Source: a bacterium (lineage in GTDB: Bacteria > Margulisbacteria > Marinamargulisbacteria > JAHFDA01). From it: DNA of 39,164 bases. The position numbers were made by a program, and so were the translations under genes. Where the stretch lies: the NCBI GenBank assembly GCA_023249225.1, contig JAHFDA010000009.1:1-39164 (forward strand), in the 5' to 3' direction. Of the stretch, positions 4,688 through 39,164 are shown in pieces (within the stretch, counting starts at the first letter, position 1; the number at the start of each line of letters is the position of its first letter). The notes under the pieces were generated by a model. The model had not been told where the DNA came from. It did not search any database and worked only from the letters and a program-made list of their open reading frames with translations.

Positions 4688-7600
4688 ATGAATCAGGACT
4701 TTTTCGGCGCTCCCCAGGTGTTCTTAAAAACCCTTGCCCAGCGCCTCGAAACCATTGCCAGCCTAGTGCCGGAAATCATGTTCCGGGCCGCAGATGCGGA
4801 TGCAACGCAAACATTTCGTTCTCTGGTGGATACTCTGAACGCGCAGTTTTTAACGTTGCGTGAACTATGCAACATTATTCCGCCGAAGCAATTCCGCCTG
4901 GTGGGCCTGACCGCCACGCTGAACCTTTACAAGGAATACGCCGCCGCCACGCCAGAGGGAGCCTTGCCCGATTTGCTGCGTTTTTACAACGAGTTCAGCC
5001 GTCTGATATGGCCCTATGTGGAGCATTTTGGACACGATCGCGACCTGGCGTTATTCCACGGCCATTTGCAAAACGTGCTGGCGCTGGGGTATTGGAACTT
5101 GTTTCTGGAATCTTTGGGAACTGCGGAGTTGGCCGTGCCTTGGACCTCGCCGGGCGGCAGCCGTCCGGTTTCCACCAAATTCATCGACCCCACCCGCGCC
5201 CAAACTGCGCCGCTCTTGATTGCGCGCCTGCATTGGCTGATGGATCATGGATTTTTTGATGCCAGGGAATTTGAAAGGCAATTGCAAAAGTTGCGCGGCG
5301 TAGAGACAGGTTTAAAACCTGTCTCTGGTTCCGATACAACGGTGGAAGACTCTGATTCCGAAATCAAGATCGAGGACGAGACCGGGAACAGGGCGATCGG
5401 GGTTGGTCAACGGATCAAAGAACGCATCTACGCCCGCATGGCGCGGGAGTACCATGAAAATATCGCGCCACGTTTGGCGGAAGTTTCGAAACATGCGGGC
5501 ATCGCCGCCGAGTCGGACATGGGCCTTTTGATGTTCAAGCTGCTGCTCGAACGTTTCGGGTATCCCACCTTCAGCGAAAATTGTCCGCAAGGTTTCGAAG
5601 ACGGAATGAAGGGAAAAGTGGCAGTGCATTTTCGCCACGCCAACGAGGACGACCTTGCCGAAGTGGAAGCCCTGCATGAACTGGGCGGCGCGCCGCTGAT
5701 GACGCTCAAAGGCAAGTGGTATCAGGATCGCTACAAAGATGGTCGCAAACGTGCATGGGTCGAGCAGGCCATGGTGCGCGGGCCGGAGCATTATCACCAG
5801 GTCAAGTTTAGTCAGCCCGTGCCGGTGGACTACGGCTTCGATTATTACTCCGATGTTCCCGGCCCGACCTCCGGCTGGCACCAGCGCCTCACGGTGGGCA
5901 AGGATCTGGGCCACCGCATATTGATGCATGCGGGCGTGGGCGTGCCCAAGGCGGTGTGGGTATGCTCCCCGGATCCCCAGCACCTCGACCATTTTCAAAA
6001 AACTTTGCGCACGCGCTACCCGCTGTCCGAAATCATTTGCGCAGCAGAGCATGACCATCTTGATCTCCTTGTTCTGGAACTCTGGAGCATGGGTTTTGGA
6101 CGGGTGGCGGTCAAGTCTGACGACAGCGACAACGGCACGGGTGTCATGATCGGCGACCTCAATGATCCAGCCTTTGTGGAGCGCATGAAAAACTTTGTGT
6201 CGATTTTGCTTGCCAGCGGTCAAAGCCTCTTGGTGCAGGAGCGCATCGAACCGCCGTACATTGTGATTGGCGGCGTGGAACACGACTGGAACCTGCGCGT
6301 GTTCATCACCCGCGATGATGATGATCAAACCATCGTGGCTGGCATTTCCGTGCGACATTCGCCCAAGGGCGGGCCGGTCAACCTGTCACTCACCGCCAAA
6401 ACCTTGACGCTCGAAGAAGTCCAAACATTGCTGGGTTTGAGTGCCGCCGAAAAAGCCCAAATGTGCGCGACGATTCAAAACACGGCGATTAAGCAGTACC
6501 ACGCGGTGCAAGCGGCCATCGAAGGCTTGGTGCCGGCCGGGACGGCGGGAGTGCTCGACTGGAACGGGATCGACGTTATTCTGCGGCGGGAACAAGATTT
6601 GTTCGTCCCTTACATCATCGAAATCAACGGCTGTAATTCCGGCGCCATGTGGAACAGCGGAAATCGCGTGGGCGACATGGCGCACGTGACGCGCCCCTAC
6701 GCGCGCCTCATGCTGCGGCGCGGACAGGCGTATCGCGCGAAAGATGGAAACGAAGCCGAACATTGGAAGGCCTGGGTTCCGGCGGACACGGCGCGGTATT
6801 ACGAACGTCTGCTGGCCCAGTATCCCGACGATGCGCGGCTTTTGGAATACGCCTACCAGTTTTACTCGCAGGGCGATTTGGACGACCTCGATCGGGGCGA
6901 GGTGATCCTCCGGAACTTGTGCGTCATGGAGCCCTTCAACCCGCAATATTGGAACGACCTGGGCGCGGTTCTGTATTACCAAAAAAAGTCCGACGCCGTT
7001 GGTGCCTATCTTACAGCGCTGGCCATTGTTCCCGGCGAGGCCGAAGTCACCGTCAACCTGGCCCTGGCGTATATCGATGAGGAAAAGTGGGATGAGATTG
7101 AAAAACTTTTGGCGCCCATTGTGCCGAATTCGGAATTCTATGTCAAAGCCACCCTTGCGCGGGTGCGGGCCTTTGCCTTGCAGCATAAGCATGCCCTGCA
7201 GCGGCAAGTGATCGAAGATGCATTAATTCACCATCCCGACCACCCCGAACTGCTGGGCGCCATGATCTATGTCCACATGCATCAGAAAAATTATACTGAC
7301 GCTGGCATCAACGCAGTCAGACTTCAAATTTATCAGCCCAAGCTGGTTGCGCCGCGTTTGCATCAGCTATTTTTGCGCCACCTAAAGGATGACGAGGCGG
7401 TGGCGGGCGCGTCCGGCTGGAATCTTGCGCTGGGCATTGGTGAAACGCTTGAAATGCGAAACAGCAAGCGCATGGCGCTGCGCTATTATCATGCCGGCGA
7501 TTTTGAACATGCCGCCACCCTCTATCGGCTTATGTTGTCATGGAAGCCCCTGGACACGGACTGCTGGAATAATCTGGCGGTGGCGTACATGGAGCAAAAC

Positions 7601-11376: not shown

Positions 11377-11721
11377 TTAACCCAGGGGCCAGCTAAAACT
11401 GCGTCCAGCCAGCACATGCAGATGGATGTGGAATACGGTCTGGCCTGCTTTTTCGCCATTGTTGAATACAAGCCGGTAGTCGTCCATGTTTTGCTGTTGC
11501 ATGAGCGTGCGGGCGGTGCCAATCATATGCCCCAGCAGGGTGATGTCGGCCAGGGATGTGTCGGCGATTTTGGCGATTTTGCGTTTGGGGACGATCAAAA
11601 GGTGGATGGGCGCCTGGGGATTGATGTCTTTGATGGCAATGACCAGATCGTCTTCGTAAAGGATGTCGGCGGGGAGTTCACGGTCGATGATCTTTTGAAA
11701 GATGCTTTTCTCTGCGCTCAT
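11377..11721 (-). CDS. HIT-family nucleotide hydrolase (HinT-like)
   Basis: A 114-aa protein with the histidine triad HIHLHV near the C-terminus and the N-terminal pattern SIFQKIIDRELPADILYEDD typical of HinT/PKCI proteins. These enzymes cleave phosphoramidates such as AMP-lysine or other adenylated amines. The length is normal. It ends 50 bp before rpmB and shares a short divergent promoter region with the FGGY kinase (24 bp between starts), where TATTAT/ATAATATA lies on either strand. Confidence 0.92.
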   Translation of the reverse strand: MSAEKSIFQKIIDRELPADILYEDDLVIAIKDINPQAPIHLLIVPKRKIAKIADTSLADITLLGHMIGTARTLMQQQNMDDYRLVFNNGEKAGQTVFHIHLHVLAGRSFSWPLG

Positions 11722-28583: not shown

Positions 28584-30287
28584 TCAAACCTGCCGCAGCA
28601 GGCCATGCAGGGTGCCTGTGATGTCTTTCTTAAGTTCATTTGTGATGGCAGGATTTGGAGCAAAACGCAGTTCTTCAAGCTTGCCCAAAATCTCCACGAT
28701 ATTTTGCAGCTGTTCTATTGGAATTCCGGCGGCTTCGCTGCGCAGGGACTCATGGGTGATACCGCGGATGTTGGTGTGGAAGCGGTGTTGTGCGATGGCC
28801 ATCAGGACTTCATAGGCTTCCTTGGCCCACTCGGCTTTGTCTGGCAGGCTGTTCAGCCGGGACAGTTGTTTTTTAATGAGCCGTACCCGGCGGCGGCGGA
28901 ATTTCTGCACGACTTGCAAGACCAGCGTTCCCAAACCCATGACGCCAGCGATCAGCAAAACCAGTTTTCCGTATTTTTTAACAGCCAGGGCTTGTTGGGG
29001 TGGAATATGAATTTGGATACTGTCAGAAGGGGCGCTTACTGTGTTTGAGGCTGTCAGGGTTTGCGAAGCCAGGGAGGTCTGTGCAGGCGGTAGCGTAAGC
29101 GTTAATGCTTGTGACTGGTAACGTTTCTGGGCCGGGTCAAAATAGGTCAGCTGTATTTCGGCGGCTGGCAACGGGCCGGATTTTTCTGGAATCACAAAGT
29201 AGTGAAAGGTTTTGCGGCTGTTAAAACGGTTCGTGGCCAAGGTTTCTTCTGCTTCGGTCTTATCAAGGTAAAATCGCAGCCCCGGGATTTCTGTCATTGA
29301 AAGATTTTGTACCCGATCAAGGGCCCCGGCACCGCTGACCACAAAATCAAGGGGGGCAGGTTCAAAACTCTTAAGCAATTTGGGCAGTGGCTTGGCCAGT
29401 GACAATTTAAAAATTCCCACGGCACCCGAAAAATCTTTGGGACGGGGTTCGGGCAGGGCCCATACTTTAATGGCGACGGGTTTTGAGCGTTGTTCCTTGC
29501 CGCCGCCAAAAGCGGAATCGCGGTACACAAGGGTAACACTGCCGATGGTAAAGTTTCCGGGCTTAAGGGCTGACAAACTGCGCACCAGGGTTTCGGTATA
29601 AAAATGTTTTCCATCGCGGTCGCTTTCACCGTGTTCAAACTGGTTGCTGGCGCCTTGGGCCGCAAAGCCGCTAAAATCTGGCAGCGTGATTTGCGGGTTC
29701 TGGACAAAGCCACGGTCGTAAAGGATACGGACCGTGACAGCAAACTTTTCGCCTTCGTAGACCTGGGTCCGGCCAGGCAGGATCTCCACGCGCAGATCCA
29801 TTTCTGTCGGGGCCTGTCGGCGGAAGGCCTGGTTAAAGAATTGATCTCTAAAGAGGTCAAAGGGATCGGTGATGTTGGGTGGCGGAGGAGCTGTCGTGGT
29901 CTGGGGTTGGGTGTTGGGCGCCGTCACGGTCATCGGAATGGCCTCGGTTTGATACTCGCTGCCCTGGTAGCTAAAACGCAGCGCCGGAATTTGCAGATTG
30001 CCTTGCTTAAGCGCTCTAAGCGTAAATTCAATGGTTTGAGAGCGATTCATACGGCCATTGATGAGTTGGATCTGCGTGCTTTGAGACTGTCCCAGTTTTT
30101 CAAAGTCCGGAAGCTCCGGGATGCCTAAGTTTCCAATGTTGGTATCGCCATTGACCTGCAAGTACAGCGAAAATGTTTCGTTAATCGCCACGCTGTTGCG
30201 GTCGACGCGGGCAGTGATTTGGACGTCGGCAAGGGCGCAGGCTGAAAGTAACAGAAAGATGAGCAGGCTTCTACCAATCTTTTTCAA
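28584..30287 (-). CDS. batD: BatD-like protein
   Basis: A 567-aa protein with a signal peptide (LLIFLLLSACALAD), then repeated Ig-like strands: ARVDRNSVAINETFSLYLQV, LPDFEKLGQSQSTQIQLING, a Pro/Thr-rich linker near residue 140, and VEILPGRTQVYEGEKFAVTV. A membrane helix lies near residue 440 (LVLLIAGVMGLGTLVLQVVQ), followed by a cytoplasmic helical tail. This is the BatD/BAM layout. Bat proteins act with MoxR-type ATPases in envelope stress and oxygen tolerance. The TTG start at 30287 lies 17 bp inside the batB gene, with AAGGAG at 30295-30300, which supports it. A leftmost gene of the Bat operon. Confidence 0.9.
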   Translation of the reverse strand: MKKIGRSLLIFLLLSACALADVQITARVDRNSVAINETFSLYLQVNGDTNIGNLGIPELPDFEKLGQSQSTQIQLINGRMNRSQTIEFTLRALKQGNLQIPALRFSYQGSEYQTEAIPMTVTAPNTQPQTTTAPPPPNITDPFDLFRDQFFNQAFRRQAPTEMDLRVEILPGRTQVYEGEKFAVTVRILYDRGFVQNPQITLPDFSGFAAQGASNQFEHGESDRDGKHFYTETLVRSLSALKPGNFTIGSVTLVYRDSAFGGGKEQRSKPVAIKVWALPEPRPKDFSGAVGIFKLSLAKPLPKLLKSFEPAPLDFVVSGAGALDRVQNLSMTEIPGLRFYLDKTEAEETLATNRFNSRKTFHYFVIPEKSGPLPAAEIQLTYFDPAQKRYQSQALTLTLPPAQTSLASQTLTASNTVSAPSDSIQIHIPPQQALAVKKYGKLVLLIAGVMGLGTLVLQVVQKFRRRRVRLIKKQLSRLNSLPDKAEWAKEAYEVLMAIAQHRFHTNIRGITHESLRSEAAGIPIEQLQNIVEILGKLEELRFAPNPAITNELKKDITGTLHGLLRQV

Positions 30288-31923
30288 CGTGTTTCTCCTT
30301 TTGCTGCTGCCGCATACGCTCTTCTAAATCTTTCTTTTCTTGATCCTTAAAACTGTCCAGGATTGATTTGGCCTGCGATTGCTGTTTGTTTTCTTTATGT
30401 TCCTGGTTTTGTGGTTGTGGTTTTTGTTGTTTCTGTTCAACCATCAAGCGGCGTACCACTTCTAAATTGTGTTTGGTGTCAGGGTCATTGGGTTTAAGCA
30501 GCAGGCTTTGTTCCAAGGCTTTAAGCGCTTCGGGAAATTGTTTTGTGCCTGCCAGGCTGGAACCCAGGTTATAAAAGGCGTCGGAACGGAGCGGGTTTCC
30601 AGGTTCCATGTGTTTCAGGGCCTGCGCAAAGGCGTTGGCAGCGGCACCGTGTTCGTTTGATTTTTCGAGCGCCAGACCCCGGCTTAGATGTGTGGTGGCT
30701 TCGTCTTCGGGCAGGCGTTCGTAATACTTGTAGGCGCGGCGCAAGTTTCCTTTTTCTAAATATTGATTGCCCTTGCGCAGACGCAGGTCGTCGATAGGGC
30801 CGGCGTACACGGTGCCAGCCAAAATTCTGCTGAAGCATAGAGTTAAAACAATCAGCGCAGCCACGGTGTGGGCCTCGACCGCAGCAGATTTTTTTGAGAA
30901 TGCTTCCATGCGCGAAAGATTTTTTTTCCAATCGCGCGGCTGTGAAGCATGCGAAAGACAGGTTTCCAAACTAATCAGTACCAGCGCCAGCAGGGCAAAC
31001 AGGGAATAGCGGTCTATTTTGCTTGCCAGGCGGCGGTTTTGAAAAGTGCCTTTCTTTAGGTTTTCAAGATCTTGCATCACAGCCAAAGCGCTGCCGCCTT
31101 TTTCATTGATCAGGTAAATTTTGTTTTCGGTAGAAAGTGTTTTGAGCGCTTCCAGGTTCATATGGCTGATGACCAGCTTGCCTTGGCGGTCTTTTTTGTA
31201 ACCGGCGGCTTTTCCATCTTGATAGACCGGTATGGGTTGTCCGGCCTCGGTGCCAATGCCCACCGGGTAAACATGAATTTTTTGGTTTTCGGCCCGTTCA
31301 CGCCAGTGGCCCAGACCGCCTTCGTGGTCTTCGCCATCGGTAAAAATAATCAATGCCTTGTCGTAAGCGGTGTTTTTGGAAAACATTTTTTCGGCGCATT
31401 CAAAAGCGGCTGCCAGGCTGGTGCCCGGTAAAGGTTCGCGATGCACTTTGAGCGTATTCATGAACAACTTGATGGCGCTATGATCAGCCGTCAGCGGCAC
31501 CAGTGGCGATGCCGATCCTTCAAAGGTCACAAGGCCGAGGCGGTTAAGCCCAAGTGCATCGATCATGCGGCCCATTTCGAGCACGGTTTTCTCCAGCCGG
31601 TTTGGAATCACATCTTCGGCCAGCATACTGCGCGAAAGATCCACCGCAAAAATGACTTCGAGGCCCCGGCTTTTAAATGATTCTTCCTTAAAACCCCATT
31701 GCGGGCGGGCCAGCACCAAGAGCAGGCACAACATTCCCAGGTAAAATAAGGCGCGTTTGGCACGCAGGCCCCAACTGTTTTCAGAAAGCATGGACTGCAC
31801 CAGATGAAGCTGTCCAAAACGCTCCAAGGGTGCGGCGCGGCGCTGATGAAAGCGACTTTCGAGCCACCACAGCACGAGTGGAATCATCAGCAAGCACAGC
31901 CATAGCGGCTCCGCAAAGCTCAT
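30271..31923 (-). CDS. batB: BatB-BatC fusion: vWA domain plus TPR
   Basis: From ATG 31923 the product is 550 aa. Two membrane helices near the N-terminus flank a loop. A vWA domain with MIDAS VIFAVDLSRSMLAED, then TFEGSASPLVPLT and IFTDGEDHEGG follows (~residues 80-270). A helix near 300 closes the BatB part. Another helix (VAALIVLTLCFSRILAG) and three or so TPRs (KYYERLPEDEAT, AFAQALKHMEPGN, EALKALEQSLLLKPNDPD) and a Gln/Lys-rich tail correspond to BatC. In other bacteria these are often separate genes. The ATGA overlap with batA shows coupling. A 75-bp longer start upstream lies inside batA and is unlikely. Confidence 0.9.
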   Translation of the reverse strand: MSFAEPLWLCLLMIPLVLWWLESRFHQRRAAPLERFGQLHLVQSMLSENSWGLRAKRALFYLGMLCLLLVLARPQWGFKEESFKSRGLEVIFAVDLSRSMLAEDVIPNRLEKTVLEMGRMIDALGLNRLGLVTFEGSASPLVPLTADHSAIKLFMNTLKVHREPLPGTSLAAAFECAEKMFSKNTAYDKALIIFTDGEDHEGGLGHWRERAENQKIHVYPVGIGTEAGQPIPVYQDGKAAGYKKDRQGKLVISHMNLEALKTLSTENKIYLINEKGGSALAVMQDLENLKKGTFQNRRLASKIDRYSLFALLALVLISLETCLSHASQPRDWKKNLSRMEAFSKKSAAVEAHTVAALIVLTLCFSRILAGTVYAGPIDDLRLRKGNQYLEKGNLRRAYKYYERLPEDEATTHLSRGLALEKSNEHGAAANAFAQALKHMEPGNPLRSDAFYNLGSSLAGTKQFPEALKALEQSLLLKPNDPDTKHNLEVVRRLMVEQKQQKPQPQNQEHKENKQQSQAKSILDSFKDQEKKDLEERMRQQQKEKHVEKDW

Positions 31924-32930
31924 GTGGCAAACCTTAGCTTGGTATACGTCAAATAACGGTAAGCCAGCAATAGAACCAGGGCCAACAGGGCCAGCCATTT
32001 AAAGTTTTCGCTGGCTTTTTGTTCTACCAGACTTTGGATCTTAGATTTTTCAAGCGTATCGATATCATCAAATATCTTTTTAAGTTTTTCGGCAGACTGG
32101 GCCCGGAAAAATTTTCCGCCGCTGACGTCGGCCACCATCGCCAGGTCTTCTACATTCAGCTGGGCCAGAAAAGGTTGGCCATCGGGACCGACGGCATAAT
32201 GTTTGCGTCCGTCTTCGCCCATGATCGGAATGGGAGCGCCAGCGTCTGAACCGATGCCAATGGTATAAACTTTAATGCCCAGGTCACGCGCCAGTTCTGA
32301 AGCTTCTTTTGGACCCAGGGCGCCCGCAGTGTTCATACCGTCAGAAACCAAAATCACCACCTGCGATTTGGCATCTGACTCACGCAGACGGTTTAAAGCG
32401 CTCACCAGGGCCATGCCAATGGCCGTGCCGTCGCCAGCTTCTCCCAAGGTCACGCCGCCGACTAAATTAAGCAGCACATCATGGTCAAGCGTCACCGGAC
32501 ACTTGGTAAAACTCTTGTCGCCAAAAACCACCAGGCCAATGCGGTCATTTTCACGCTTGCGGATAAATTGCTGCACAATTTTTTTGGCCGATTCCAAACG
32601 GTTGCCCGCCAAGTCCTCGGCGGCCATGCTGCCCGAGGTATCAAGCGCCACCACAATATCGACGCCATGGGTGATAATTTCTTTTTCTTTCCAGCGGTAT
32701 TGGGGCTGGGCCACCAGTGCCACTAAGAGACCCAGGATCAAGAACTGTAAAAATTGTTTCAGCCCGATCCAAGCCTGCGCGCGACGGATACCCGGAAGTT
32801 CGGTGTGCTCGCCGAGCACGGGAACAGACAGCACGCTGCGGTTTTGCCGCCACTGCGCCAGAGCCCATAAGGGCCAAACCAGCAACAGCAGCCAAAACGC
32901 TTCGGGTCGGCCAAAGTGGTTAATCAACAC
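31920..32930 (-). CDS. batA: BatA, membrane vWA protein
   Basis: A 336-aa protein with two N-terminal membrane helices (FWLLLLVWPLWALAQW; FLQFLILGLLVALVAQ), a vWA domain with IVVALDTSGSMAAEDLAGNR and ILVSDGMNTAGALGP (MIDAS), and a final helix (WLALLALVLLLAYRYL). The layout is that of BatA. The start is GTG 32930 with no clear Shine-Dalgarno. It is 10 bp after the SGNH gene. It overlaps batB by 4 bp (ATGA). BatA and BatB may form a membrane complex. A MoxR gene, usually beside batA, is not in this window. Confidence 0.9.
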   Translation of the reverse strand: MLINHFGRPEAFWLLLLVWPLWALAQWRQNRSVLSVPVLGEHTELPGIRRAQAWIGLKQFLQFLILGLLVALVAQPQYRWKEKEIITHGVDIVVALDTSGSMAAEDLAGNRLESAKKIVQQFIRKRENDRIGLVVFGDKSFTKCPVTLDHDVLLNLVGGVTLGEAGDGTAIGMALVSALNRLRESDAKSQVVILVSDGMNTAGALGPKEASELARDLGIKVYTIGIGSDAGAPIPIMGEDGRKHYAVGPDGQPFLAQLNVEDLAMVADVSGGKFFRAQSAEKLKKIFDDIDTLEKSKIQSLVEQKASENFKWLALLALVLLLAYRYLTYTKLRFAT

Positions 32931-32940
32931 AGCTAAAATA

Positions 32941-34152
32941 TTAATCTAATACGACCACATGTCCATCCATGTGCAGGCGGTACTGTTTCCAATCATTGAT
33001 GGGACGTTTGAAATACTGGGTCTGCACAAACTGGCCAATGATCTGGGCAGCAATCACCAGGCCACTGACCTGAAAGTGACAATCATCCTCAAACAGGTCG
33101 TCGCGATAGTAGGCGCGCTCAAGGTAATTCATATAGGTGACATGCGGATATTTGCTGCAAAGCGCACGCACAAACTTCTCGGTCTGGGGATAATAAAAGT
33201 CTACGGCTTTGTTCCACGATTCATCAAACATGCGGGCACTGTTTAACTGGTATAGGCGTTCCTGGGCTGTCAGCGGACGAAACGAGCGCATATAGCCCAG
33301 GCTGCCTTGAAAGATGTGCAGCACCGGAACATGGCGTTCCTGGGTCATGTGAAAGATGTCTTCAAGTTGCGACCCCATCATTTGAAAAAGCTTTTCACGG
33401 TTTGCATCAGTCAGTGGCAGAGGCTCTAACTGCACAACGGGTTTTTTGGTATCCACATTTTGGTAGTTTTTAACGTAAGCATGCGCCAGCAGTGACAAAG
33501 CCATGGAATGTGCTTTGAGTCGGAACCAAAGCTGTCCAAAGCGGCCACAGTGCTGGTTGGCGCGGCGGACATTGATCAAAACCCTTTCATTGACCAGGTT
33601 GTACGAGTACAGATCGTTCCAGCCAGAATAATTAACGATTAGATCCCAATGGTAGTTACGTAAATTGAAAACCTGTTGGCGCTCATTGGCGGCTAAACCG
33701 GCCCAGATGCCGCCATTGACGACCACAATGTCGAGGTCGGGATTTTGGGTGCGCAGCATAAACTCCATAATGTAAGGCCAGCTGTATAAATGGTGTTCCG
33801 ACCCGGCAGTGGCAGAACCTCCCAGCACCAGAATCCGGTAGTGTTTAGGATTGTCGGGGCGTTTAAACGTAAAGTCGGTATGACCTTTTTTAAATCCAAG
33901 CGGGTGAAAGATCTGGTATTTGTCTTCGCGGTGGTAAAAATAACCGGTTTGTCCGCTAAGCTGCAGGTGCAGAGTCTGATAGGCATCCTTGCTAAAGCCA
34001 GCCCAAATCCAGACACAGGCACGTGCGGCGATTTCCAGGCCGACAAAAAATACCAGCGGCGCCAACAGGGCCACCAGCAGGTTGGTAGACAGAGAGCGAG
34101 GTGGCCGCTTTATATGAACCGTTTGTGGCGGCAAGTTTTTTTTGGGGGGCAC
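32941..34152 (-). CDS. Membrane-anchored SGNH/GDSL hydrolase
   Basis: A 403-aa protein with one N-terminal membrane helix (LLVALLAPLVFFVGLEIAAR). SGNH blocks are visible: ILVLGGSATAGS near residue 108-118 (Ser nucleophile), VVNGGIWAG (block II Gly), NYSGWNDLYSYN (block III Asn) and DDCHFQVSG near residue 365 (Asp and His of block V). These enzymes remove acyl or acetyl groups from sugars, lipids or cell-wall polymers. The start is GTG at 34152. It is 10 bp upstream of batA and 37 bp downstream of the vWA gene, all on one strand, so it may belong to a large Bat-like transcript. Confidence 0.82.
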   Translation of the reverse strand: MPPKKNLPPQTVHIKRPPRSLSTNLLVALLAPLVFFVGLEIAARACVWIWAGFSKDAYQTLHLQLSGQTGYFYHREDKYQIFHPLGFKKGHTDFTFKRPDNPKHYRILVLGGSATAGSEHHLYSWPYIMEFMLRTQNPDLDIVVVNGGIWAGLAANERQQVFNLRNYHWDLIVNYSGWNDLYSYNLVNERVLINVRRANQHCGRFGQLWFRLKAHSMALSLLAHAYVKNYQNVDTKKPVVQLEPLPLTDANREKLFQMMGSQLEDIFHMTQERHVPVLHIFQGSLGYMRSFRPLTAQERLYQLNSARMFDESWNKAVDFYYPQTEKFVRALCSKYPHVTYMNYLERAYYRDDLFEDDCHFQVSGLVIAAQIIGQFVQTQYFKRPINDWKQYRLHMDGHVVVLD

Positions 34153-34189: not shown

Positions 34190-36586
34190 TCAACGGCCGG
34201 TAAGGTAATTGGCCAGCGAGAAAGCACGGCAAAAAGCCAGCAGTTGTTCCCAGTTGATCAGCGGATAATAGTTGTATCCCGCTTGAATAAGCGGTTCCAG
34301 TTCTTTTTTGATGCGCGAATCTTCTGTACCGCCGTAATAATCTCGAATGAGCAAGGAGCCGCCCGCCCCGGCTTGTTGCAGGGCCCAGCGCATGACATCC
34401 TTGCCAGGTTGTTTTGTTTTCCAGTCCCGGTCGCCCACCATGTATACCGCTTCGTTGTCGCTGATAACCGCAATATGGGCCTTGGCCCCCTCGGGCAGAG
34501 CTTGCTGATAAGCATCCACCACGCGCCAGTGCGGAAAAGTCGTGGATGAGGCCACATGCATGGGTTGCACGATGTGTGCCACCACCTCTTCTACCGTGTT
34601 GCAAAACTTATTGGTGGAGATAGAGTGGCCCGGCTGATTGGAGCCATATACCGTCACCCGCACCTTGGCGCCTTGCTGGATGGCGGCCATGGCCAGGACG
34701 ACACCGGCCAGAGCCTGATACGAGAGTTGCTGCATGGCGTTGCCCATGGAGCCCGAAGCATCAACGTAAATGTCGAGCCACATCGGCAAGGGGCTGTTTT
34801 CGGTGCTGGGCTCGGCCCGGGGCACATGTTTGCGCTTTAGAATATTAGCCCCAAAAATGGGTATGCCGCCGTATGCTACCGTGTTGACCCAGTCGATCTC
34901 ATCGACGGGGTGGCCCATTTTCCAACCCGTGACGCCAGCATCCACTTTTCCGGGCACAACGGGTTGTGGCACGCGGGGGATGCGGATTAAATTTAAAAAA
35001 CGCCGCGCCAGATCACGGTAATACATGATGACCAGCGCCAACTCGCTGACCTGGCGTCCGCTGGCCTGCACCATGGCTTTAAACTGGGCCATGTCACGGA
35101 TTGTGTTTTGAAAGTCGCCCGTGATCTTGCGCCGGTCGCCTTCGGTGTCGGTGGGTTCATCGGCAGGGCCGCTTTCAGGAACGTCATATTCCTTGACCTG
35201 GCCGCCTGCTGCTCCGCTATCCGCTTTGCTGACCTGGTTCTGTTCTCCCTCCACGTAGTCATCGTCAAAGGACTCGGCTTCCATTTCGTCGGCGTCTTTG
35301 GTCGAAAGATCATCTCCTGCATCTGAAGTGGCTTGCTCGGCTGCCGCCTGGGTTTCTTCGGCCAGGTCTGATTCTGGCTCACCGTCCTCAAATTCACCTT
35401 GGGCGGCTTTTTGCGAGGCTTTTTCGGCCATTTTTTCGGCTTCAGATTTTTTGCCTTTGTTACCCTTGGTTTTGCCTGCTTTGGATTTTGTATCATCGGT
35501 TTCTGATGTCTGTGCTTCACCGGCATCCCCACTGCCAGCTTCGCCTTCGGCAGCGGCGCCTGCTTGGGCGGTCTTTTTGCTTTTTTCAGTTTTTTGTTTT
35601 TGAGACTGCTGTCGCGCAGACTGGGCGCTATGCTGATCGGGGCTTTTTTCAGAGGCCTCCTGCATGCCCGGCGGATCCAGATAAGGCTGAATCACTTTGG
35701 CAAACTTGCGCATCCCTACCAGCTCTGACACACCCGCCTTGGGCCCTTGATCAAGACCGTAGGTATGAATGATGCCGGCCAGCCTGCGCGCGTCGGTCTC
35801 AATCGATTTTGCTACCGGATCCGTGAGCGTGCCAGGTTTCAGTTCCCACAGAATTTCATAAGCGCGCATATAAAGCTGCCACAATTTGGAATCATGCCTG
35901 GTCTTGCCATGGTTCATGGCCTGATACAACGCCACCATGCGCAGGTCATGCTCTTTTAAAAGGCGTGTGTTGATAATCATGTCTTCGTAAAGGTTGGCGG
36001 CCATGGCGGATTTTTGTGGATCTTCTAAAACTTTGTTGGCAAAACTGTTAATGATGACGGCGCGCTGGCTGTGCTTGGGTGTCCACAAATGATGTCCCAT
36101 CTCATGGGCCATGATTTCCACCAGGTAGGCGTACAGTTGTGGTTTATGCGCGCTTAAAGTGTGGTTGCTGATGTAGGTGTCCTGGCTGGCCATGGAGATG
36201 CCGGCAATTTCGCTTTTTCCAGTGTGCGGGTTTAGCATGCCAACCGCCAAGGCAGCGGCGGGATCCTCGATAATGGTGGGATCATTTAAGGTCATAAAAG
36301 GCGAAACCCGTTTGCGCGCAATCTGCCAGAAATTAAGCCATACCGCGTTGTCGGGCGGAAACTCGCAGAATACCGCGCCGCGCTTGCCGACACTATTTGA
36401 GACTTTAAAATCAAAATGGCAAGACGCCAGTTCTTCCATGACCGTGCGGTAACCGTAATTTTCAATGGCTTCAAGGGCAACTGTAAAACCACCGCTCTGG
36501 GTCATGATGCTCTGCCAGTCCAGGCCTGTGACGGCCCCGCCCGCAGGGCTAGCGGCGGCCAGACGTTTAAGCGCAAGGGCGGGCAT
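34190..36586 (-). CDS. vWA protein with N-terminal metallopeptidase-like domain
   Basis: A 798-aa protein in three parts. Residues ~30-305 contain VEIMAHEMGHHLWTPKHSQR with HExxH at 161-165, as in the metallopeptidase-like domain linked to DUF2201-type vWA proteins. Residues ~305-480 are low complexity and acidic/Ala/Lys-rich (GSGDAGEAQTSETDDT, EQATSDAGDDLSTKDADEME), a flexible linker. The C-terminal part (~residue 600 on) is a vWA domain with WLDIYVDASGSMGNAM (MIDAS), VTVYGSNQ and HIAVISDNEAVYM. No membrane helix or signal. It starts 2 bp after the stop of the beta-propeller gene. This pairing resembles MoxR-vWA-beta-propeller ternary systems, in which MoxR remodels the vWA partner. Confidence 0.8.
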   Translation of the reverse strand: MPALALKRLAAASPAGGAVTGLDWQSIMTQSGGFTVALEAIENYGYRTVMEELASCHFDFKVSNSVGKRGAVFCEFPPDNAVWLNFWQIARKRVSPFMTLNDPTIIEDPAAALAVGMLNPHTGKSEIAGISMASQDTYISNHTLSAHKPQLYAYLVEIMAHEMGHHLWTPKHSQRAVIINSFANKVLEDPQKSAMAANLYEDMIINTRLLKEHDLRMVALYQAMNHGKTRHDSKLWQLYMRAYEILWELKPGTLTDPVAKSIETDARRLAGIIHTYGLDQGPKAGVSELVGMRKFAKVIQPYLDPPGMQEASEKSPDQHSAQSARQQSQKQKTEKSKKTAQAGAAAEGEAGSGDAGEAQTSETDDTKSKAGKTKGNKGKKSEAEKMAEKASQKAAQGEFEDGEPESDLAEETQAAAEQATSDAGDDLSTKDADEMEAESFDDDYVEGEQNQVSKADSGAAGGQVKEYDVPESGPADEPTDTEGDRRKITGDFQNTIRDMAQFKAMVQASGRQVSELALVIMYYRDLARRFLNLIRIPRVPQPVVPGKVDAGVTGWKMGHPVDEIDWVNTVAYGGIPIFGANILKRKHVPRAEPSTENSPLPMWLDIYVDASGSMGNAMQQLSYQALAGVVLAMAAIQQGAKVRVTVYGSNQPGHSISTNKFCNTVEEVVAHIVQPMHVASSTTFPHWRVVDAYQQALPEGAKAHIAVISDNEAVYMVGDRDWKTKQPGKDVMRWALQQAGAGGSLLIRDYYGGTEDSRIKKELEPLIQAGYNYYPLINWEQLLAFCRAFSLANYLTGR

Positions 36587-36588
36587 GG

Positions 36589-39024
36589 CTACTGCGCTGC
36601 CTGAAACTTAATTTCCACCACTTGCCCGTCTTTATCTCTGACCCACAAGCAAGTGGCATGGCTCCACAAAACTTCTGCAATGGACGAAAGCTGCCGCGCA
36701 AGGGGCAGGGTCTGGAGCAGTACACCCGTGTCACGATAAAGCTGCAAGCTGCAGTCAGCCTTATTGCCAAGCAGCACCAGGCCGGCGGGAGCGTCAAAAA
36801 GCTTGAGTTGTTTTAAAGGAGCAGTCTCTGCGGCGTTTTTCAAGTCATAGCTGTGATAAAACTGTCCGCGTTCGCCTAACACATGCACCCGCGCCGGAGC
36901 ATCCAGGACCGCCAGTTTAGCGCCACTTTGAGCGATGTCTTGCGGGGCTTGCAATTGGCCAGAGTCGCTGCCTTGCAAGCCGTACCGAGAAAGCAACTGC
37001 TCTTGAGAATTGACGACCACAATTTCCTTGGTGTCGGCGTCATAAAAAACCGCATTGCCACTGGCAGTCAGGCACAGATGGCAGGCTTGCTGATGGCTGA
37101 CAAACAGGGGGCGCAAGCGACCTTTATCAGTCACGGTCAAAAGACCATCGTGCAATTCAATCCAGGGCGCTTTTTTCAGGGCGCGGGCAGATTCAAACAG
37201 CTCTGTATCAGCCAGCGCAGACACGCTTGCAACGCCGTGCTGGTGCGCCAGCGAGTCTTGAGGCACTCTGTCCGCCAGAGCCGCTCGTAGTGCGGCTATG
37301 ACAGACTCGGAAGCAGAACCAGATTCTAAATGTGCCTCCACCGCAGTCCGCAGTAACTGTTCTTGAGCTGAAAACGATTCGGCTTCTGTCAAAGCCAGGC
37401 GCATAATCTGGCTGTCGGTGCGCGAGGCCACCAGCAAATCTCCGTCCGCAAGATCGCAGAGGCTGTCCACATGGGGCCAAGCGAGGTTTTGCGAGCGGAA
37501 AATTTCATGACCGTCTGTGCCATAGCTTAAAAGCTGCCGCGCTACATTGGCCGCGACCAGATGTCCGAGCGCATCCACATGCAAGGCGGTCAGATGGGTA
37601 TCCACACGAGCCCAGACCTGGGCCGGCGCAGCATGGCCGAGATCTGTGCGGCAGATTGTTTGTTCATCGGGCTCGTAATAATACAAAGCGTCTCCGCCCA
37701 GGCACCATAGTTTAACCTGCGCCGGAATTTGGATTTGTTGTGAGTGTCCGCTGTTGCGATCCAATATAAAAAAAACATTAAGGTTTTCGTCTGCAGCAGC
37801 CGACCGCTGCTCAAGCAGCAATACAGCATGGTCTTTAGACAGGCGGGCCGATTTGAGCTGACCCTCTAACGCATCCCTGCTCTTCCACTGAATCTTGTAG
37901 CGGTCCCTGGGGGCATTGGCCACGCGTGCGCCATGGTTGTCGAGAAACAAAACATCTCCGTCTGCATCCACGGTCCAAACGGCCTGGGACAAATGGTATC
38001 GTTCGCCTACCCGGTAACCGCTGTGAGTTGGCAGGAGCTCGACGATCTGGTCCAGTTTTTCGTCATAGACAAAGAGGCGGTTTTGACGGCATACCATGGC
38101 GCGTACCTGGGTGATATCCACGCGCCCTTCGATCGAAACCGGACCTAAAGGAAAATAACGTCCAGGAATTTTTTGCAGTGCACGGTGACGGTCATTTAAG
38201 TTCAGCGCACTCTTAAGCAGGGCCGCGAACACCACGCTCTCCAAGGGCTTGAGCGCCGCCAGCAAGGCTACGGGCAAGGTTCCGGCAATCTGCCAAAGCC
38301 GCTGGTCGTGACAAAGTCGATATCTTTGCAGCGCTTCCTCTGCCACCCACGTCTGTTCAGACTCCGATAGCTCCAAAAACCCGGGCAATGTAAGCGCGCG
38401 AAGATATTTTAAAACGCTTTTGACATCTACCCGCGTCTTGGCAGATTCCAAGGTAGTGCTGGTCTCGATCAGACCGGTTTCATACAGTGCCAGCTCGGTT
38501 GCCAGGTTAAAGTGCCCGGCCAGGATCATGGCCTTAAAATGGCGCAGGTGGTCTAAAAACTGATGGATCTGAAGATTCTGGGCCAAGCCCTCGCGGTGCA
38601 GGTGCGCACATAACTGGTATAGCTGCGGAAACATGGCTCCCACGGGTGCCTGGTTCAAGTCGCCTAAAAAATCGGGTGCAAAATCTGCAAAAAAATACTC
38701 AAGCCTCAAATCGCGCTCGGCGGAGGCATACGGTTCGTCGAGCCCACCTTTTTCAGCGCGGGCGACAAACTGGCGATTGCGGATGGCTTGGGTGGCAAGC
38801 AACAACAAATTGTGTAGTGCCACATACTCTGTCCGGCTGACCGGCAAACGCCCCAGGGGCACAAACAAGTATTGATCCGCCCAATAAACAAACAATTGTC
38901 TAAAGGCAGTCTTGGGGCCCAGCAAGGCCAGAGCCTGCTGCATGCTTTGTTCAAGGACAGCGCGTGCATCGCCTGGCGCAAGGCGCAAGGCTGCCTGACG
39001 CCAGACAAGGCTATTAACGGCCAT
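36589..39024 (-). CDS. Large beta-propeller-like partner of the vWA protein
   Basis: From ATG 39024 the product is 811 aa. The first ~300 residues are helical (VEEALQRYRL-like segments such as VWRQAALRLAPGDARAVLEQ), and the rest shows repeated blades of 45-55 residues with strand pairs ending in short charged turns: RQNRLFVYDEKLDQIVELLP, AVWTVDADGDVLFLDNHG, LGHLVAANVARQLLSYGTDG and GLVLLGNKADCSLQLYRDTG. This is the plan of an NHL/beta-propeller protein with an N-terminal helical domain. A start at 39096 would extend far into the upstream gene. With ATG 39024 the overlap is 11 bp, typical of coupled genes. I could not assign it to a named bpX family by eye. Confidence 0.72.
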   Translation of the reverse strand: MAVNSLVWRQAALRLAPGDARAVLEQSMQQALALLGPKTAFRQLFVYWADQYLFVPLGRLPVSRTEYVALHNLLLLATQAIRNRQFVARAEKGGLDEPYASAERDLRLEYFFADFAPDFLGDLNQAPVGAMFPQLYQLCAHLHREGLAQNLQIHQFLDHLRHFKAMILAGHFNLATELALYETGLIETSTTLESAKTRVDVKSVLKYLRALTLPGFLELSESEQTWVAEEALQRYRLCHDQRLWQIAGTLPVALLAALKPLESVVFAALLKSALNLNDRHRALQKIPGRYFPLGPVSIEGRVDITQVRAMVCRQNRLFVYDEKLDQIVELLPTHSGYRVGERYHLSQAVWTVDADGDVLFLDNHGARVANAPRDRYKIQWKSRDALEGQLKSARLSKDHAVLLLEQRSAAADENLNVFFILDRNSGHSQQIQIPAQVKLWCLGGDALYYYEPDEQTICRTDLGHAAPAQVWARVDTHLTALHVDALGHLVAANVARQLLSYGTDGHEIFRSQNLAWPHVDSLCDLADGDLLVASRTDSQIMRLALTEAESFSAQEQLLRTAVEAHLESGSASESVIAALRAALADRVPQDSLAHQHGVASVSALADTELFESARALKKAPWIELHDGLLTVTDKGRLRPLFVSHQQACHLCLTASGNAVFYDADTKEIVVVNSQEQLLSRYGLQGSDSGQLQAPQDIAQSGAKLAVLDAPARVHVLGERGQFYHSYDLKNAAETAPLKQLKLFDAPAGLVLLGNKADCSLQLYRDTGVLLQTLPLARQLSSIAEVLWSHATCLWVRDKDGQVVEIKFQAAQ

Positions 39025-39164
39025 CGGGGTTTTGTTGCTTCCAATGGATGTACGAGCGGGTTTTGTTGTGCATGTCCGCAAGTTGCAGGCGCACAAAATA
39101 AATGTAGGGGTTGTGACCGGCTTTTAAATTTTTTTCATTGTTTAACAATTTCCCCAATTCCTTT
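39014..39164 (-). CDS. C-terminal end of an unknown gene, 5' part outside window
   Basis: The last 49 codons are open from the edge to TAA at 39014-39016. The peptide reads KELGKLLNNEKNLKAGHNPY, then IYFVRLQLADMHNKTRSYIH, then WKQQNPDGR. The stop overlaps the ATG of the propeller gene by 11 bp, so the two are in one operon. Too short to identify. In a ternary system of the suggested type it could be the next bpX component or the tail of the ATPase gene. Confidence 0.6.
   Translation of the reverse strand, partial: KELGKLLNNEKNLKAGHNPYIYFVRLQLADMHNKTRSYIHWKQQNPDGR

What the first reader, a model, noticed from the sequence alone, without database searches (positions are those of the whole stretch)
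34190..39164. vWA-peptidase plus beta-propeller pair: part of a MoxR-vWA-propeller type system running off the right edge
Seen: a vWA protein with an HEMGHH motif at residue 161 and a long acidic linker, 2 bp after a large propeller-like protein, which overlaps a third partial gene by 11 bp. Known: MoxR AAA+ ATPases with vWA partners and propeller (bpX) proteins form a class of predicted bacterial conflict or signalling systems. Inferred: this is one of them, and the missing MoxR lies beyond 39164. The tight overlaps and the HExxH part make it the best candidate for a functional multi-gene system here.
Basis: partly seen in the sequence, partly recalled or inferred. Interest (0 to 1): 0.75.

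Follow-up and report, generated by a model that had tools for sequence, protein, structure and literature searches.

The report
AAA+ motor with metallopeptidase-vWA and propeller
Four tightly packed genes encode a predicted ATP-driven ring motor, a partner that joins a predicted zinc-peptidase domain to a vWA docking domain, a propeller-type protein that may pick the target, and an unknown protein; the motor-peptidase core recurs in other bacteria with different recognition parts, one of them hypermutated by a reverse transcriptase.

Summary
In detail: HExxH-vWA protein (34190-36586), 2-bp gap, 811-aa propeller-like protein (36589-39024), 11-bp overlap with a third gene. That gene is a MoxR-like AAA+ ATPase (C53:39175-40671), cut by a 10-N scaffold gap at the window edge; a 264-aa unknown gene overlaps it upstream. 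The predicted AAA+ partner is therefore real. The filing fails: no bpX/bpMoxR match, propeller not fused to the vWA, P-loop not GxxxTAKS. The core is an AAA+ plus zincin-vWA pair, an unprofiled cousin of DUF2201 and like the MoxR/metallopeptidase-vWA pair reported in jumbo phages; the vWA model best matches NorD of NorQ-NorD. The pair recurs in WOR-1/Saganbacteria (AAA+ fused to an FGE/C-type-lectin domain) and in 9-13 Mb genomes I take for Myxococcaceae (AAA+, unrelated middle protein, zincin-vWA). In one Saganbacteria contig the lectin segment just upstream of the peptidase gene is the target of a diversity-generating retroelement. Best reading: an ATP-driven, recognition-gated remodelling protease with constant motor and peptidase-vWA and an exchangeable recognition part. 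Proteolysis, targets and any defence role are inferred.

The parts
34190..36586 (-). Zincin-vWA protein, 798 aa
35681..36358 (-). Zincin-like domain, residues ~77-302
   Evidence: AF2 pLDDT ~75-97; hhalign to a DUF2201_N protein, 70%
36089..36106 (-). HEMGHH, residues 161-166
   Evidence: HExxH conserved in 14 of the other 15 homologues aligned; lost in L071
35105..35680 (-). Disordered, charged linker, residues ~303-494
   Evidence: AF2 pLDDT mostly below 50; composition
34796..34981 (-). Conserved segment before the vWA (W555, D565, G574); candidate for a NorD-like pore finger, by position only
   Evidence: NorD finger lies before its vWA core; low AF2 confidence here
34211..34795 (-). vWA domain with MIDAS DxSxS-T-D, residues ~598-792
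36589..39024 (-). Middle protein, 811 aa: helical N-terminal half, strand-rich C-terminal part
   Evidence: no orthologue in 190 genomes
36829..37140 (-). NHL-propeller-like stretch, residues 629-732
   Evidence: PDB TRIM71 E 6.2e-6
39014..39163 (-). C-terminal end of the AAA+ gene; body at C53:39175-40671 beyond the window, with a 264-aa gene at C53:40661-41455 overlapping it by 11 bp

Best explanation
An ATP-driven, recognition-gated remodelling protease. Shown: a compact four-gene array (264-aa unknown, MoxR-like AAA+, helical/propeller protein, zincin-vWA) joined by two 11-bp overlaps and a 2-bp gap; the AAA+ and zincin-vWA recur together in distant bacteria while the third component differs. 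Inferred: the AAA+ forms a hexamer; the vWA docks on it as NorD does on NorQ; the propeller (here), an FGE/lectin domain fused to the AAA+ (WOR-1/Saganbacteria) or another middle protein (Myxococcaceae-like genomes) selects the target; ATP hydrolysis pulls on vWA and linker, remodels the target and presents it to, or unmasks, the tethered zinc peptidase. Whether the purpose is defence, quality control or maturation is open; the retroelement link in one relative leans towards sensing of variable targets there.
For: Gene packing. AAA+ motifs and AAA_5 match. HExxH with D202/N206 and MIDAS conserved across phyla; L071 lost HExxH, D202 and N206 together. vWA model closest to NorD in NorQ-NorD complexes, a MoxR-vWA machine with a pore-entering finger and a functional linker (PMC13036017). 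AAA+ and zincin-vWA found in the same genomes. Third component varies: FGE fusion, 275-aa protein in the L023-type loci, NHL-like here. DGR with variable repeat in the FGE segment next to the zincin-vWA in L021.
Against: No peptidase activity, zinc or complex is shown. The propeller part rests on one ~100-residue match. The window copy has no DGR gene beside it. In the Myxococcaceae-like family the block is a conserved, mostly single-copy feature of about 48 genomes, which suits a core function at least as well as a conflict system.
Confidence: 0.45

Rival explanations
1. A NorQD/CoxDE-like maturation chaperone: AAA+ and vWA remodel one partner enzyme so that a metal is inserted; the HExxH domain binds or delivers metal without cutting, and the propeller is a scaffold.
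For: Best structural match is NorD; NorD too has an N-terminal domain, a disordered linker and a vWA; four cysteines in the AAA+ lid region of the window and L023-type proteins could hold a metal.
Against: HExxH plus D202 is kept as a catalytic-type set; no client metalloenzyme was identified beside the array; the FGE and propeller variation suggests varied targets.
Confidence: 0.25
2. A divergent member of the MoxR-vWA-beta-propeller (bpX) ternary conflict systems.
For: AAA+, vWA and a propeller-type protein side by side.
Against: No bpX/bpMoxR/VMAP profile hit; no propeller on the vWA protein; P-loop GGPGQGKT; no transmembrane-like segment by hydropathy; definition in PMC7159879.
Confidence: 0.08
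3. An accessory of the Bat (aerotolerance) operon that follows it, working on the BatA/BatB/BatD membrane complex.
For: SGNH-like gene, BatA, BatB-TPR and BatD follow on the same strand with short gaps.
Against: The canonical MoxR (AAA_3) and a DUF58 gene sit ~15-17 kb beyond the window on the same contig. Bat-like genes were not apparent in the ORF lists around L020, L022 or the L023-type pairs (by inspection, not by profile).
Confidence: 0.08

Closest known systems
DUF2201_N/DUF2201 zincin-vWA proteins (PF13203, PF09967) with a neighbouring AAA+
   Same: Zincin then vWA in one protein, aligned HExxH and D..N motif; AAA+ gene beside L082 and apparently L083
   Different: No Pfam hit for the window protein; long charged linker; third component
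MoxR plus metallopeptidase-vWA pair of group 2.2 jumbo phages (PMC7824862)
   Same: Same pair of components and domain order, as published
   Different: No tblastn match of this family in 50,697 phage records; bacterial chromosome; third component. The published proteins themselves were not compared
NorQ-NorD (MoxR AAA+/vWA chaperone)
   Same: vWA fold, MIDAS, N-terminal domain plus disordered linker
   Different: HExxH domain in place of the NorD N-terminal domain; no NOR operon
MoxR-vWA-beta-propeller ternary systems (Kaur et al. 2020, PMC7159879)
   Same: AAA+, vWA and propeller-type parts encoded together
   Different: Propeller in a separate protein, different P-loop, no bpX profile, zincin domain present
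DGR-diversified AAA+/C-type-lectin sensors (PMC10907252)
   Same: Relative L021: DGR, with an FGE-type lectin segment as target beside the pair
   Different: Partner here is a zincin-vWA; no DGR gene beside the window array

Membership tests
Kaur beta-propeller ternary system (bpX) | MoxR-like AAA+ gene next to the vWA gene | tested here: met
   AAA_5 match, MoxR-type motifs
[quoted passage not shown]
   Protein ends with the vWA
Kaur beta-propeller ternary system (bpX) | P-loop GxxxTAKS (often) | tested here: not met
   GGPGQGKT
Kaur beta-propeller ternary system (bpX) | Pfam bpX/bpMoxR profiles | tested here: not met
Kaur beta-propeller ternary system (bpX) | Third component with TM segment, TPR and propeller | tested here: inconclusive
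   NHL-like stretch yes; no TPR profile hit; no TM-like peak
DUF2201 zincin-vWA | Match to PF13203/PF09967 at the Pfam cut-off | tested here: not met
   No hit; own genome has none
DUF2201 zincin-vWA | HExxH then D..N then vWA, in order | tested here: met
   hhalign, both domains
MoxR-vWA chaperone pair (NorQD class) | AAA+ partner gene and MIDAS vWA of NorD-like fold | tested here: met
MoxR-vWA chaperone pair (NorQD class) | vWA finger entering the pore of an AAA+ hexamer | not testable with these tools
   Candidate segment by position only
Zinc metallopeptidase | HExxH plus third ligand, and activity | tested here: inconclusive
   HExxH and D202 conserved; L023 protein near the M48 cut-off; activity not testable
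DGR-diversified conflict system | RT, Avd, TR/VR with adenine-directed changes at the locus | tested here: not met
   Own genome has only an RT fragment on another contig; met in relative L021

The most novel reading that the evidence does not exclude
A modular surveillance protease: a constant AAA+/zincin-vWA engine whose recognition module is exchanged between lineages (NHL propeller here, retroelement-hypermutated lectin in Saganbacteria, other proteins in Myxococcaceae-like genomes) and which cuts its targets in an ATP-gated way.
Probability: 0.3. Interest if true: 0.75.

Novelty: new variant of a known kind. Interest (0 to 1): 0.5.

Why it matters
MoxR-vWA machines are widespread but few clients are known. 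A version with a built-in predicted peptidase and an exchangeable recognition part, in one relative diversified by a retroelement, would join AAA+ remodelling and hypervariable sensing in one testable system; the Myxococcaceae-like copies should offer tractable hosts.

Tried and rejected
bpX filing: fails three tested features. AF2 on the propeller part without an alignment: unusable, so no fold search was made with it. Homology of the propeller protein to the L023-type or G192 middle proteins: none by hhalign or shuffled Smith-Waterman. DGR link for the pairs in G031: its RT lies on another contig and shows no TR/VR match to L020 or L095. PADLOC: nothing meaningful. Promoter and terminator scan: no more sites than in shuffles.

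Full report
Observation. The two genes and both junctions are as described: zincin-vWA 34190-36586 (-), 2-bp gap, 811-aa protein 36589-39024 (-), 11-bp overlap with a third frame. The window stops at 39164 because the contig (C53, 61,360 bp) has a 10-N gap at 39165-39174. Beyond it the third frame is an AAA+ ATPase (C53:39175-40671), overlapped by 11 bp by a 264-aa gene without a convincing family match. The array is therefore 264-aa, AAA+, propeller-type protein, zincin-vWA. The true number of bases in the gap is unknown; both sides read in the frame of one AAA+ gene, as its homologues do.

The AAA+. Pfam AAA_5 scores 28.2 bits (cut-off 22); AAA_3 is below its cut-off and bpMoxR is not listed. 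An alignment with homologues shows Walker A GGPGQGKT, a Walker B WDEVNR, the sensor asparagine and a DR arginine. It matches the AAA+ of L023, in a 9-Mb genome, at 28% over 436 aa, E 1e-52.

The zincin-vWA. Pfam sees almost nothing, but the alignment of 16 proteins keeps HExxH, a downstream D202/N206 pair and a full MIDAS. The L071 paralogue has lost HExxH, D202 and N206 together, which suggests that D202 is a metal ligand (inference). AF2 with the alignment gives a confident helical zincin-like domain, a disordered linker and a vWA. The best PDB matches are vWA domains in NorQ-NorD complexes, where a finger of NorD enters the NorQ pore and the linker is needed for function (PMC13036017). hhalign links the zincin part (70%) and the vWA part (90%) to DUF2201 proteins, two of which also have an AAA+ type gene upstream.

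The middle protein. Residues 629-732 match NHL propellers (TRIM71, E 6.2e-6). The remainder looks like strand-rich blades behind a helical N-terminus, but no orthologue and no usable model supports this.

Relatives. AAA+ and zincin-vWA were found in the same genomes in the two searches of 383 genomes, allowing for pairs cut by contig ends. In WOR-1/Saganbacteria contigs (named; same phylum as the window by the genome search) the AAA+ is fused to an FGE/C-type-lectin domain. About 48 genomes of one family of large GC-rich genomes carry AAA+, a ~275-aa middle protein and zincin-vWA; the middle protein was found in all 30-odd loci examined. G192 has another middle protein after its AAA+, cut by a contig end. 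None of these middle proteins is detectably related to the window's.

Retroelement. Contig L021 carries bAvd and RT genes and a 112-nt template repeat at 1673-1784. One variable repeat (6338-6449) ends the FGE-type gene just upstream of the zincin-vWA. TR-VR mismatches fall on template adenines 18/27 and 19/30 times, and the two VRs differ from each other at 27 sites, 25 of them template adenines (hypergeometric p 2.5e-15). The AAA+ part of that gene lies off the contig, so the AAA+-lectin fusion there is inferred from L022.

Mechanism. The best-supported reading is a MoxR-vWA type remodelling motor with a tethered predicted zinc peptidase and an exchangeable recognition part. The components, their linkage and their conservation are shown; hexamer formation, docking, target choice, proteolysis and biological purpose are inferred. 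The main rival is a NorQD-like metal-insertion chaperone.

Comparison. The published beta-propeller ternary definition fails on three tested features (PMC7159879). The closest published architectures are the jumbo-phage MoxR plus metallopeptidase-vWA pair (PMC7824862) and DUF2201. What appears new is the unprofiled subfamily, the exchangeable third part and the DGR link; I found no paper describing this combination in five literature searches.

Noticed in passing
L021:343-1784 and 6338-6449 (JACRKQ010000001.1): A diversity-generating retroelement (bAvd, RT, TR, two VRs) beside a zincin-vWA gene; the VRs differ almost only at template adenines.
   Followed up: yes
AAA+ lid region: L018 ~11540-11690 (-), L023-type loci: Four conserved cysteines (C-x26-C-x2/3-C-x8-C) in the window AAA+ and all L023-type proteins checked, a similar set in L024, absent in the FGE-fused ones and L094; possible metal site.
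   Followed up: partly
window 28584-34152; C53 ~53.9-56.6 kb: Bat operon looks split: BatA, BatB-TPR and BatD follow the array, while canonical MoxR and DUF58 lie ~21 kb upstream on the same contig and strand.
   Followed up: no
L071:9951-12911 (G295): AAA+ and vWA pair whose vWA protein has lost HExxH and the D/N pair: a degenerate peptidase domain.
   Followed up: partly
G475, G485, G489, G490, G495, G501 (e.g. L074): A second, ~39% identical copy of the zincin-vWA in six of the large genomes; in L074 it has its own AAA+ and a middle protein.
   Followed up: no
L095:5588-8008 (G031): A second AAA+ (806 aa) in G031 with no zincin-vWA found beside it; only a C-terminal vWA fragment at the start of another contig, C69.
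   Followed up: partly
C53 ~41.5-47.4 kb (L018:13520-19358): NadR-like, adenylation/thioester-reductase (NRPS-like) and asparagine-synthase genes upstream of the array.
   Followed up: no
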